NCBI GenBank assembly: GCA_029959645.1
Contig: JASCOJ010000017.1
Span: 1-32,698, forward strand
Direction: 5' to 3'
Source: Microbacteriaceae bacterium PS02332
Lineage (GTDB): Bacteria > Actinomycetota > Actinomycetes > Actinomycetales > Microbacteriaceae
DNA: 32,698 nucleotides
Of the stretch, positions 6,244-8,895 are shown one piece after another. The notes under the pieces were generated by a model. The model did not search any database, was not told the DNA's origin, and saw only the letters and a program-made list of their open reading frames with translations. How positions within the stretch are numbered: position 1 is the first letter of the stretch; each line of letters begins with the position of its first letter. The translations under genes were made by a program, and so were the position numbers.

Positions 6244-6489
6244 TCAGTGCGTCGACTGCTCCGCGCGGATGCGGGTGAGGACCTCGGCCCGGAGCTGGTC
6301 CGGCGCGGTCTCGCGGCAGGCTCGCTTCACGGTCTCCATGAGCACGACGCCGACGCGGTGCTCGGTCAAGCAGTCCTCGCAGCCGTCCATGTGCTCGCGG
6401 ATGTCCGCGGCGTCCTCGTGTCGCAGCTCGTCGTGGAGGAACTCCTCGAGCTCCGCCTTCGCCTTGGAGCAGTCGCAGCCGCCCATCAT
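6244..6489 (-). CDS. rsrA: Zinc-binding anti-sigma factor RsrA (thiol redox sensor)
   Basis: An 81-residue ZAS-family anti-sigma factor. The signature H33-x3-C37-x2-C40 (HMDGCEDC) is intact. N-terminal cysteines C5 and C7 (GGCDCSK) supply the further zinc ligand, and C58 is an additional cysteine. In the family, reduced RsrA holds its sigma factor inactive; disulfide stress expels zinc, forms a disulfide and releases sigma. The ATG (6487-6489) overlaps the sigR stop codon by ATGA, so translation is coupled and stoichiometric with SigR. A second in-frame Met follows immediately. The operon arrangement is the conserved actinobacterial sigR-rsrA one. Confidence 0.92.
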
Positions 6490-7358
6490 GCGTCCTTCCG
6501 GGTCGTTCGGGTCGATCGGGTCGTCGTCGGGGCGGCTTCCCGTGTGCTGGCGCCGCGGCCCCGCCCGCGCATCGTCGCGGTCGACGCTGCGTCCGGGACG
6601 ACGCCGGTCTCCCGGGCATGGTCGGCCAGGAGCCCCCGGAGGAGTCGGCGACCACGGTGGAGCCGGCTCATGACCGTGCCCACGGGGGTCTTCATGATGT
6701 CCGCGATCTCCTGGTAGGAGAAGCCCTCGACGTCGGCGAAGTAGACCGCCATCCGGAAGTCCTCGGGGATGGCCTGGAGCGCGTCCTTCACAGCGGAGGA
6801 CGGCAGGTGGTCGATCGCGTCGGCCTCGGCGGACCGCGCGGAGATCGACTGCGTGACGCTCTCCGCGCCGCCGAGCTGCCAGTCCTCGAGCTCGTCGATG
6901 GTCCCCTGGTACGGGTTCCGCTGGTTCTTCCGGTACGTGTTGATGAACGTGTTCGTCAGGATCCGGTACAGCCAGGCCTTGAGGTTCGTGCCCTGGCGGA
7001 ACTGCCGGAACGCGGCGAAGGCCTTGACGAACGTCTCCTGCACGAGGTCGGACGCGTCGGCGGGGTTGCGGGTCATCCGCATCGCGGCGCCGTACAGCTG
7101 GTCCATGAACGGCAGCGCCTGGTCCTCGAAGAGGCGGCGGAGCTCGGACTCGGAGACCGTCTTCGCGTCGACGGGCTCGGCGACCTCCGTGTCGGTGTCG
7201 CCGTCGGCCGGGTCGACCACATCGACCTCGTCGGCCGAGTCCGCCGGGTCGACCTCGTCGCCGTGCAGCTCCGCGTCCTCGTTCTCGACCGCGTCGAGCT
7301 GGGCCTCGGTCTGGTCGACCAGGTCGGCGGGTGCGGCGTGCGGTTCGTCGGTCGTCAT
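6486..7358 (-). CDS. sigR: ECF RNA polymerase sigma factor SigR/SigH (thiol-oxidative stress)
   Basis: A group 4 (ECF) sigma factor of 290 residues from the ATG at 7358. An acidic N-terminal segment (rich in Asp/Glu, about residues 10-65) precedes region 2 ([31 protein letters not shown], then [19 protein letters not shown]). Region 4 reads [44 protein letters not shown] Thr/Arg-rich tail of about 45 residues follows, much of it encoded just ahead of the rsrA start. TAGACT (7367-7372, minus) ends 8 bp before the ATG, giving a leaderless short form. A second in-frame start, TTG at 7475, has a strong AGGAGGA ribosome site (7479-7485) and a sigma-R-type promoter upstream, so a 329-residue isoform is probable. 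It directs thioredoxin, mycothiol and protein quality-control genes in relatives. It is partnered with rsrA. Confidence 0.93.
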
Positions 7359-7366
7359 CGCCCGCC

Positions 7367-7372
7367 AGTCTA
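7367..7372 (-). promoter_or_regulatory. Inner sigR promoter p1, -10 element (leaderless short SigR)
   Basis: TAGACT on the minus strand lies 8 bp before the ATG at 7358, fitting a vegetative leaderless promoter for the 290-residue SigR. It sits inside the coding sequence of the longer isoform. No convincing -35 was seen. Confidence 0.5.
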
Positions 7373-7478
7373 GGCGGACCGCGGTGACCGGGCTCTGCGG
7401 CTCGGGGACCGTCGTGCGGACGCGCGACAGGCGCGTGGCCGTGGTCGGCCGGTCCGGTGCGAGGGTGGTCGCCAATGC

Positions 7479-7485
7479 TCCTCCT
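7479..7485 (-). promoter_or_regulatory. Strong ribosome binding site for long SigR isoform
   Basis: AGGAGGA followed by gca and then TTG (7475-7473) in frame with sigR. It is one of the best Shine-Dalgarno sequences in the window, and would have no purpose unless the TTG start is used. The inner ATG at 7358 has no comparable site. Confidence 0.65.
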
Positions 7486-7489
7486 GGTG

Positions 7490-7512
7490 CGGTTCAGTAC
7501 CCTGGTGAACCG
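7490..7512. repeat. Inverted repeat in the sigR/aroA divergent region
   Basis: Arms cggttca (7490-7496) and tgaaccg (7506-7512) with a 9-nt spacer. It covers the GTT of sigR p2 and the aroA -10 region and ends right before the aroA ATG. It may be an operator, or simply symmetry of overlapping promoters. Confidence 0.5.
7498..7503 (+). promoter_or_regulatory. -10 element of aroA (leaderless)
   Basis: TACCCT ends 9 bp before the aroA ATG at 7513, placing the transcription start at or within about 3 bases of the start codon. It overlaps the sigR control region on the other strand. Confidence 0.45.
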
Positions 7513-7533
7513 ATGGCAGAGACGACGCATTCC
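7508..7533 (-). promoter_or_regulatory. Sigma-R-type autoregulatory promoter p2 of sigR
   Basis: On the minus strand GGAAT (7533-7529) is followed by exactly 18 nt and then GTT (7510-7508). This is the GGAAT-N18-GTT consensus known for SigR/SigH regulons. Transcription would begin near 7500 and carry the AGGAGGA site and TTG at 7475. The -35 lies within the first codons of aroA, so the promoter overlaps the divergent gene. Confidence 0.8.
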
Positions 7534-8895
7534 CACGGTTCCCCCGAGGCGACCCGGCAGCCCGGTCCGTGGCTCGCGCCGGTGGCGGCCGGCCCCCTGC
7601 GCGGCGACGTCGCCCTGCCCGGCTCGAAGTCGCTGACGAACCGCGAACTCGTGCTCGCAGCGCTCGCGGACGGCCCCTCGACCATCCACCTCCCCCTGCA
7701 CTCCCGCGACTCCGCGCTCATGGTCACGGCCCTCCGACAGCTCGGGGTGCGCATCGACGAACTCGAGCCCGAGGCCGGCACGGCCCCGAACCCGTACGGG
7801 CCGGACCTCCGGGTGACGCCCGCGCCGATGACCGGCGACGTCCGCATCGACTGCGGTCTCGCCGGCACCGTGATGCGGTTCCTCCCGCCGCTCGCCGCCC
7901 TCGCCGTCGGCGCGGTCACCGTGGACGGCGACCCGTCCGCGCGGCGCCGACCGATGGACGTCGTGATCCGCGCCCTCGCCGACCTCGGCGTCGCGGTCAC
8001 CGACGACGGCGACGGTTCGATGCCCTTCACCTTCACCGGGACCGGGTCGGTGCGCGGCGGCACGCTCGACGTCGACGCGTCCGCCTCGTCGCAGTTCGTC
8101 TCCGGCCTGCTCCTGTCCGCACCCCGCTTCGACGAGGGACTGCACCTCCGACACACGGGCGAGCGCCTGCCGAGCCTGCCGCACATCGCGATGACCGTGG
8201 ACGTCCTCCGGGCCCGCGGCGTCCGCGTCGACGAGCCCGCGGTCGGTGAGTGGGTCGTGCACCCGGGGCCGATCGGGGCCCGCGACGTGACGATCGAACC
8301 GGACCTGTCGAACGCCGCGCCGTTCGCGGTCGCCGCCCTGGTCGCCGGCGGGACGGTGCGGATCCGCACGTGGCCGACGGTGACGACGCAGGTCGGTGCC
8401 GACCTCGAGACGCTCCTGCCGCTCTGGGGAGCGACCGTGACGCGTGACGGCGAGGACCTCGTGGTCGACGGCGGCGTCGGGGTCCGGGGCGGGGCCTCCC
8501 TGCCGGGACTCGACCTCGACCTGACCCGCGGCGGGGAGCTGGCACCGCCGCTCGTCGCGCTGGCGGCACTCGCCGACGGCCCGACGCGCGTCACGGGCAT
8601 CGGCCACCTCCGTGGGCACGAGACCGACCGGCTCGCGGCACTCGCCGCGGATGTGTCCGGCCTGGGAGGCTCGGTGACCGAGGAGCAGGACGGCCTGCGG
8701 ATCGAGCCGGCTCCGCTCCACGGCGGCCCGTGGGCCGCGTACGAGGACCACCGGATGGCGACGGCGGGTGCGGTCCTCGGACTCGTCACCGACGGCGTGT
8801 CCGTCGACGACATCGGGTCGACCGCGAAGACCCTGCCGCAGTTCCCCGAGCTGTGGCGGGACCTCGTGGCGACCGGGGACGAGGAACGAGCATGA
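7513..8895 (+). CDS. aroA: 3-phosphoshikimate 1-carboxyvinyltransferase (EPSP synthase)
   Basis: A 460-residue EPSP synthase, the sixth step of the shikimate pathway (shikimate-3-phosphate + PEP to EPSP). Visible signatures are LPGSKSLTNRELVLAALADG (substrate-binding Lys and Ser, about residues 35-54), DCGLAGTVMRFLPPLAAL (PEP loop, corresponding to the LGNAGTAMR motif), DVDASASSQFVSGLLLSAPR, and the C-terminal YEDHRMATAGAVLGL with a catalytic Glu/His region. The ATG at 7513 immediately follows the divergent sigR control region and has a leaderless-type -10. The stop overlaps the rsgA start (ATGA at 8892-8895), so the two are translationally coupled. The sigR-rsrA/aroA-rsgA neighbourhood is conserved in actinobacteria such as Mycobacterium. 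Confidence 0.95.
   Translation: MAETTHSHGSPEATRQPGPWLAPVAAGPLRGDVALPGSKSLTNRELVLAALADGPSTIHLPLHSRDSALMVTALRQLGVRIDELEPEAGTAPNPYGPDLRVTPAPMTGDVRIDCGLAGTVMRFLPPLAALAVGAVTVDGDPSARRRPMDVVIRALADLGVAVTDDGDGSMPFTFTGTGSVRGGTLDVDASASSQFVSGLLLSAPRFDEGLHLRHTGERLPSLPHIAMTVDVLRARGVRVDEPAVGEWVVHPGPIGARDVTIEPDLSNAAPFAVAALVAGGTVRIRTWPTVTTQVGADLETLLPLWGATVTRDGEDLVVDGGVGVRGGASLPGLDLDLTRGGELAPPLVALAALADGPTRVTGIGHLRGHETDRLAALAADVSGLGGSVTEEQDGLRIEPAPLHGGPWAAYEDHRMATAGAVLGLVTDGVSVDDIGSTAKTLPQFPELWRDLVATGDEERA

What the first reader, a model, noticed from the sequence alone, without database searches (positions are those of the whole stretch)
7356..7533. sigR has two promoters and two starts, predicting a long feedback isoform of SigR
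Seen: a GGAAT-N18-GTT promoter on the minus strand (7533-7508), then AGGAGGA (7485-7479) and an in-frame TTG at 7475. Further in, a separate TAGACT -10 lies 8 bp before an inner ATG at 7358. The two starts differ by 39 residues. Known: SigR/SigH-type factors recognise GGAAT-N18-GTT. In Streptomyces a sigma-R-dependent promoter makes a longer, protease-sensitive SigR isoform while the vegetative promoter makes the short stable form. Inference: this lineage has an equivalent dual-isoform feedback switch, with an unrelated-looking extension ([20 protein letters not shown]...) and a leaderless inner start. The promoter also overlaps the first codons of aroA.
Basis: partly seen in the sequence, partly recalled or inferred. 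Interest (0 to 1): 0.7.

Follow-up and report, generated by a model that had tools for sequence, protein, structure and literature searches.

The report
Two-start sigR stress gene, leaderless inner
A bacterial thiol-stress regulator gene carries two promoters and two start sites, so the stressed cell probably makes a longer form of the protein, and the layout is kept in many families of one bacterial order although most of the extra protein stretch changes freely.

Summary
In one genome the promoter match alone is no better than chance; conservation settles it. In 101 distinct Microbacteriaceae loci, 101 have TANNNT-N8-ATG at the inner start, 98 have their best Shine-Dalgarno start in its frame, and none has an in-frame stop. 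P2 is present in 102 of 103. A strong Shine-Dalgarno stands before the outer start in 88 and before the inner in 0 of 101, so promoter choice should set the isoform: P2 long, P1 leaderless and short. The layout recurs in 16 other families of the order, with the outer start unclear in several, and not in 8 Streptomyces-like loci. The extension evolves nearly neutrally (pN/pS 0.84) apart from its first residues. That the long form is made and is unstable, as in Streptomyces, is inferred. P2 also interlocks with a predicted leaderless aroA promoter in 86 of 101 loci. A new variant of a known kind.

The parts
7508..7533 (-). sigR P2: SigR-type promoter GGAAT-N18-GTT (-35 7533-7529, -10 7510-7508)
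   Evidence: Sequence; such a site upstream of sigR in 102 of 103 Microbacteriaceae loci
7479..7485 (-). Shine-Dalgarno AGGAGGA of the outer start
   Evidence: Sequence; predicted anti-SD duplex -10.3 kcal/mol here, median -9.7 over 101 loci
7359..7475 (-). 39-codon N-terminal extension of the long isoform, from TTG 7475
   Evidence: Open in frame; best SD start in frame with the inner ATG in 98 of 101 loci, no in-frame stop in any; near-neutral sequence
7367..7372 (-). sigR P1 -10 element TAGACT inside the extension frame
   Evidence: TANNNT exactly 8 nt before the inner ATG in 101 of 101 loci; otherwise rare CTA or GTA codon at this place in 100 of 101
6486..7358 (-). sigR short form from inner ATG 7358 (predicted leaderless on the P1 transcript)
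   Evidence: TIGR02947 SigH_actino, 300.5 bits over a cut-off of 251.55 (long form scanned); strong SD before the inner ATG in 0 of 101 loci
6244..6489 (-). rsrA-type zinc anti-sigma factor, overlapping the sigR stop (ATGA)
   Evidence: zf-HC2 E 1.8e-5, 25.2 bits over cut-off 22.2; HxxxCxxC in HMDGCEDC
7513..8895 (+). aroA (EPSP synthase), divergent; start codon inside sigR P2
   Evidence: PF00275 E 6.4e-99; a divergent ORF starts inside P2 in 86 of 101 loci
7498..7503 (+). predicted aroA -10 TACCCT, 9 nt before the aroA ATG, overlapping the expected P2 start point
   Evidence: TANNNT 7-9 nt before that ATG in 86 of the 86 loci that have it in P2

Best explanation
sigR is read from two promoters that make two proteins. 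P1 is a housekeeping promoter with a -10 element only, inside the extension frame; its transcript starts at about the inner ATG, has no leader, and can make only the short SigR. P2 is recognised by SigR itself; when RsrA is oxidised and releases SigR, P2 makes a leadered mRNA whose Shine-Dalgarno directs ribosomes to the outer start, giving a SigR with 39 more residues. Because the inner ATG has no Shine-Dalgarno, the P2 mRNA should make little short form, so promoter choice alone sets the isoform. Shown by sequence and conservation: both promoters, both starts, the frame lock, the missing inner Shine-Dalgarno. Inferred: transcript start points, translation of the long form, and that the extension marks it for Clp proteolysis as in Streptomyces.
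For: P2 in 102 of 103 loci. TANNNT-N8-ATG in 101 of 101 distinct loci, with TA held by otherwise rare codons (CTA 67, GTA 33, ATA 1; only 10 CTA or GTA among 620 Leu and Val codons further on) and G two bases after the hexamer in 100 of 101, so the constraint is on DNA. Best Shine-Dalgarno start in frame in 98 of 101, and in 28 of 30 extension clusters. Shine-Dalgarno at or below -6 kcal/mol: inner 0 of 101, outer in-frame 88 of 101. Other families of the order (16 sampled): TANNNT-N8-start in 67 of 70 anchored loci and in both loci left unanchored there; inner Shine-Dalgarno at or below -6 in 3 of 67; best start in frame in 49 of 67; stops in the frame-0 extension in 2 of 4 loci without P2 and 0 of 63 with P2. 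A SigR-type regulon exists in the genus: GGAAT-N17-19-GTT before trxB in 13 of 13 genomes and before a ClpC-like ATPase in 12 of 12 orthologues (13 genomes, one without an orthologue match).
Against: No transcript or protein data. The extension evolves almost neutrally (pN/pS 0.84, against 0.97 and 1.09 in the shifted frames, 0.53 in the short form's N-terminal region and 0.05 in the core; 24 loci), and its codon-position GC signal is weak (0.75, 0.61, 0.76). In several other families (f69, f70, f73, f74) the outer Shine-Dalgarno is weak and the best start is often out of frame; over the order 18 of 67 best starts are out of frame. No GGAAT-type site was found near clpP in 12 same-genus clpP loci, unlike what is reported for Streptomyces, so the degradation loop is the weakest step. 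P1 has no -35 (4 of 101, control offset 15 of 101). The trxB site was not seen in the 8 trxB loci from other families: in 6 my start motif was not found, in 2 it was and no site stood upstream.
Confidence: 0.78

Rival explanations
1. The long form is made, but the extension has no function of its own: it is a by-product of keeping P1 inside the leader of P2, and selection only avoids stops so that P2 transcripts still give active SigR. (Differs from the best explanation only in the last, inferred step.)
For: Near-neutral evolution of the extension (pN/pS 0.84); length ranges from 12 to 50 codons; the inner ATG has no Shine-Dalgarno, so an in-frame outer start is the obvious way for P2 to yield SigR.
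Against: Residues 3-5 are conserved in the family (Ala or Thr 79, Thr or Ala 70, Leu 61 of 101) with varied synonymous codons, which suggests some selection on the first residues; the Streptomyces precedent gives the extension a role (PMC5472188).
Confidence: 0.4
2. Only the short form is made; P2 drives transcription but its mRNA is processed or translated from the inner ATG.
For: The inner ATG and its -10 are the most invariant features (101 of 101).
Against: Strong Shine-Dalgarno at the inner ATG in 0 of 101, at the outer start in 88 of 101; frame lock 98 of 101.
Confidence: 0.08
3. Only the long form is made; TAGACT is a chance feature of a conserved peptide (LDW..M).
For: The peptide looks conserved at first sight.
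Against: The residues vary (LDW, LEL, VDL, LSL, LES) while TA...T does not; otherwise rare CTA and GTA codons are used there; spacing to the ATG is 8 nt in all 101.
Confidence: 0.04

Closest known systems
Streptomyces coelicolor sigR: SigR and SigR' from sigRp1 and sigRp2 (PMC5472188: abstract, sections 4 and 6, passages; PMC4921905: passages)
   Same: ECF sigma factor with a redox zinc anti-sigma factor, upstream SigR-dependent promoter, downstream vegetative promoter, outer start between them giving an N-terminally extended form (55 or 58 residues in the two papers).
   Different: There the short form starts at a GTC codon with a strong AGGAGGTG ribosome site; here at an ATG without Shine-Dalgarno, set to be leaderless. 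0 of 8 Streptomyces-like loci have TANNNT-N8-start. Extension sequence, length (12-50 codons in the family) and outer start codon (ATG 47, GTG 41, TTG 13) differ. Instability is reported there, not tested here.
Mycobacterium tuberculosis sigE and sigH promoters (PMC4921905: passages)
   Same: sigE has an upstream ECF-type promoter p2 and a downstream p1 giving a leaderless mRNA; sigH has two promoters, the upstream one SigH-type.
   Different: sigE is a paralogue, and the passages seen describe promoter response to antibiotics, not an isoform switch. Of 7 mycobacterial-like loci (f6, label inferred) none has TANNNT-N8-start; one has TANNNT at spacing 5.
Corynebacterium glutamicum sigH-rshA (PMC3489674: passages)
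   Same: Orthologous operon with several promoters and autoregulation.
   Different: One ATG with an appropriate ribosome site, as stated in PMC5472188; the word isoform occurs in the PMC3489674 text searched only in a cited title.

Membership tests
SigR/SigH ECF sigma factors (TIGR02947) | Match over the curated cut-off | tested here: met
   300.5 bits against 251.55
SigR/RsrA system | Adjacent zinc anti-sigma factor with HxxxCxxC | tested here: met
   zf-HC2 hit and HMDGCEDC in the overlapping downstream gene; cotranscription not tested
SigR/SigR' dual-isoform system | SigR-type promoter upstream of the outer start | tested here: met
   GGAAT-N18-GTT here; 102 of 103 loci in the family
SigR/SigR' dual-isoform system | In-frame outer start with ribosome site between the two promoters | tested here: met
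   98 of 101 best Shine-Dalgarno starts in frame
SigR/SigR' dual-isoform system | Separate vegetative promoter giving the short form | tested here: met
   By sequence only: TANNNT-N8-ATG in 101 of 101, no -35; no transcript mapped
SigR/SigR' dual-isoform system | Long form unstable, degraded by Clp proteases | not testable with these tools
   No half-life data
SigR/SigR' dual-isoform system | Clp protease genes in the SigR regulon | tested here: inconclusive
   ClpC-like ATPase with GGAAT-N17-GTT in 12 of 12 same-genus orthologues; no GGAAT-type site in 12 same-genus clpP loci
Streptomyces-type short-form start (GTC with AGGAGGTG) | Non-canonical start with strong ribosome site | tested here: not met
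   ATG; Shine-Dalgarno at or below -6 kcal/mol in 0 of 101

The most novel reading that the evidence does not exclude
In most sampled families of the order, a leaderless inner start turns promoter choice into a clean isoform switch, so thiol stress makes only the long SigR; the long form is recognised through its first few residues (M-x-A/T-T/A-L in Microbacteriaceae) while the rest of the extension is a free spacer; and because P2 and a leaderless aroA promoter share the same bases in Microbacteriaceae, each SigR burst also shuts off transcription of the shikimate gene aroA.
Probability: 0.25. Interest if true: 0.7.

Novelty: new variant of a known kind. Interest (0 to 1): 0.52.

Why it matters
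The unstable SigR' loop is known from Streptomyces. If it is widespread in another order with a different molecular solution (a leaderless inner start in place of a GTC start with a ribosome site), the two-isoform design is what is selected while its parts are replaceable, and many cultivable species become available in which the role of a fast-evolving extension can be tested. It also bears on annotation: both sigR starts are real candidates.

Tried and rejected
Significance from the window alone: rejected. The backwards-pattern control (1 match) is not a fair null, since it needs TAAGG.

Anchoring: first attempts failed through bad regular expressions (one search found none; one search found part) and because some loci lie on the other strand; replaced by tblastn anchoring. 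Two inner ATGs picked wrongly (L009, L057) were re-picked by the TANNNT-N8-ATG rule; the 101 of 101 figure rests on that rule, and as first picked gave TA in 99 of 101. Rows dropped: of 110 Microbacteriaceae loci, 7 had no anchor and were rescued; 8 were copies of another over their last 240 nt, and L068 has only about 150 nt upstream of the anchor, leaving 101.

Strong purifying selection on the extension as proof of translation: not found. A SigR-type promoter at clpP: not found (one GGAAC match in L307 lies downstream of the clpP active-site codon). clpP in the window's own assembly: no match, but 12 of 12 other same-genus genomes have it, so an assembly gap is likely. Vegetative -35 for P1: not found. 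The 2009 and 2012 papers by Kim and colleagues on SigR' and on SigR orthologues in actinomycetes are not held; I saw only their titles in reference lists, and the 2009 title speaks of actinomycetes, so an earlier mention of part of this cannot be excluded.

Full report
What is there. On the minus strand the sequence reads, 5' to 3': GGAAT (7533-7529), 18 nt, GTT (7510-7508), AGGAGGA (7485-7479), the start TTG (7475), an open frame of 39 codons that holds the hexamer TAGACT (7372-7367), 8 nt, and ATG (7358). The gene is a SigR/SigH-type ECF sigma factor (TIGR02947, 300.5 bits, cut-off 251.55) and overlaps by ATGA a small zinc-finger anti-sigma gene (zf-HC2). The divergent neighbour is aroA (PF00275), whose ATG at 7513 lies inside the promoter. 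The best named matches of the SigR protein are Curtobacterium, so the organism is most likely a Curtobacterium (inference).

Is it more than chance? In this one window, no: the promoter pattern is expected 0.45 times and occurs in 39 of 100 shuffles. So I compared loci. A search of 249 genomes of the family found a sigR match in 237, of which 30 loci were kept; a scan of named genomes kept 80 loci of 441. Of these 110 loci, 103 could be anchored at first, and 102 of them have the P2 pattern within 500 nt upstream (GGAAT with spacing 17-19 in each); the one miss, L068, has only about 150 nt of sequence upstream of the anchor. After anchoring all and removing copies, 101 distinct loci with P2 remained. 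In all 101 one in-frame ATG follows TANNNT by exactly 8 nt (two were first mis-picked). The hexamer is TAGACT in 65, TAGAAT in 17, TAAGCT in 9 and another in 10.

The outer start. Without using frame as a criterion, I scored the ATG, GTG and TTG codons between P2 and the inner ATG for anti-Shine-Dalgarno pairing. The best one is in frame with the inner ATG in 98 of 101 loci; where the best is at or below -6 kcal/mol it is in frame in 86 of 88; no in-frame stop occurs in any of the 101. Extensions run from 12 to 50 codons. Collapsed at 65% nucleotide identity, 28 of 30 representatives are in frame. Pairing at or below -6 is found before the inner ATG in 0 of 101 and before the best in-frame outer start in 88 of 101.

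DNA or protein constraint? At the -10 the constraint is on DNA: the codon holding TA is CTA (67), GTA (33) or ATA (1), while CTA and GTA make up 10 of 620 Leu and Val codons in the following region; the second base after the hexamer is G in 100 of 101, which fits the discriminator base preferred by housekeeping sigma factors (recalled). P1 has no -35 (4 of 101 with 4 of 6 matches; 15 of 101 at a control offset), as is common for leaderless actinobacterial promoters (recalled). The extension as protein is almost free: in 24 Curtobacterium-group loci pN/pS is 0.84 (0.97 and 1.09 in the two shifted frames), against 0.53 for the short form's N-terminal region and 0.05 for the core, and GC by codon position is 0.75, 0.61, 0.76 against 0.76, 0.42, 0.86 in the short form's N-terminal part. 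The exception is the first residues: position 3 is Ala or Thr in 79, position 4 Thr or Ala in 70, position 5 Leu in 61 of 101, with all four Ala and Thr codons and four of six Leu codons in use. A general bias of N-termini may explain part of this; I did not test that.

Beyond the family. In the order, 182 of 198 genomes have a TIGR02947 match; of the 16 without, 15 are of one family, f65. I took 72 loci of 16 other families. Of 70 anchored, 67 have TANNNT-N8-start in frame; two others (both f2, small genomes) lack it and keep P2, the third has spacing 7 and no P2. The two left unanchored have it too. P2 (GGAAN, spacing 17-19, within 600 nt) is found in 63 of the 67. The best outer start is in frame in 49 of 67, and in 27 of 34 with strong pairing; strong pairing stands before the inner start in 3 of 67; stops in the frame-0 extension occur in 2 of the 4 loci without P2 and in 0 of the 63 with it. 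In several families (f69, f70, f73, f74) the outer start is not clear. Outside the order I gave 22 loci, 21 of which were anchored: one (f8) has TANNNT-N8-start. All 8 Streptomyces-like loci (f5; one of them, L121, holds the TGTDAGTEH sequence reported by Edman degradation in PMC5472188) have P2 and none has TANNNT-N8-start; nor has any of 7 mycobacterial-like loci (f6, label inferred).

Does the rest of the loop exist? In the own genome GGAAT-N17-19-GTT occurs 41 times, many probably by chance. Among the genes that follow are thioredoxin reductase (34 nt from GTT to ATG), a thioredoxin (37 nt), a glutaredoxin-family protein (132 nt), a primary sigma factor, sufB and a Clp_N-AAA ATPase (the glutaredoxin and the ATPase by Pfam, the others named by reading). 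The trxB site is kept in 13 of 13 genomes of the genus and the Clp site in 12 of 12 orthologues from 13 genomes; in 8 trxB loci of other families it was not seen, 6 of them not assessed because my motif was absent. The Clp ATPase has an LGF loop of the ClpP-binding kind (by reading). No GGAAT-type site stands near clpP in 12 same-genus loci. So the induced-unfoldase arm is plausible, the induced-peptidase arm is not seen.

How it most likely works. Unstressed: P1 gives a leaderless mRNA and short SigR, held by RsrA. Thiol stress: freed SigR fires P2; the leadered mRNA gives the long form from the outer start. Since the inner ATG has no ribosome site in the middle of that mRNA, the two promoters map one-to-one to two proteins. 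In Streptomyces the corresponding long form is degraded by Clp proteases (PMC5472188, introduction; PMC4921905, passages). Whether the extension here is a degradation signal, or only the price of keeping P1 inside the leader, is open; near-neutral evolution fits both a signal confined to the first residues and no signal at all.

Interlocked aroA promoter. In 86 of 101 loci a divergent ORF (80 residues or more; identified as aroA by Pfam only in the window) starts inside P2, and in all 86 a TANNNT stands 7-9 nt before its ATG on the other strand. Here it is TACCCT 7498-7503, about where P2 should start. So aroA is probably leaderless too, and two RNA polymerases should not be able to occupy the site together. 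In the other 15 loci no such start was found. This is a prediction from sequence.

Literature. Searches of the open library listed no paper that, by title and start of abstract, describes this layout in the order (several listings were cut at 12 to 15 papers); the two key papers by Kim and colleagues are not held, so prior mention cannot be excluded. Papers seen: PMC5472188 (abstract, sections 4 and 6, passages), PMC4921905, PMC3489674, PMC4803200 and PMC6282962 (passages).

Noticed in passing
window 7498-7515 (+), and 86 of 101 relatives: aroA appears leaderless (TANNNT 7-9 nt before its ATG) and its -10 overlaps the expected start point of sigR P2: divergent promoters that should exclude each other.
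   Followed up: partly
L250 (own genome contig C291), L251-L261: A ClpC-like ATPase with an LGF loop has a SigR-type promoter (12 of 12 same-genus orthologues) and, in the own genome just downstream of it, TTGAGT-N7-ACTCAA, which looks like the HspR (HAIR) operator (motif recalled).
   Followed up: partly
own genome G000: No ClpP match in this assembly although 12 of 12 other same-genus genomes have two to four; probably an assembly gap.
   Followed up: partly
L203 and L204 (family f2): Two small-genome relatives keep P2 but lack the inner TANNNT-N8-ATG, so they may make a single form.
   Followed up: no
window 7355-7170 (-): The short form itself carries a long acidic N-terminal stretch before the sigma core, of variable length among Curtobacterium relatives.
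   Followed up: no
family f65 of the same order: 15 sampled genomes of one family have no TIGR02947 match at E 1e-70: apparent loss or strong divergence of SigR.
   Followed up: no
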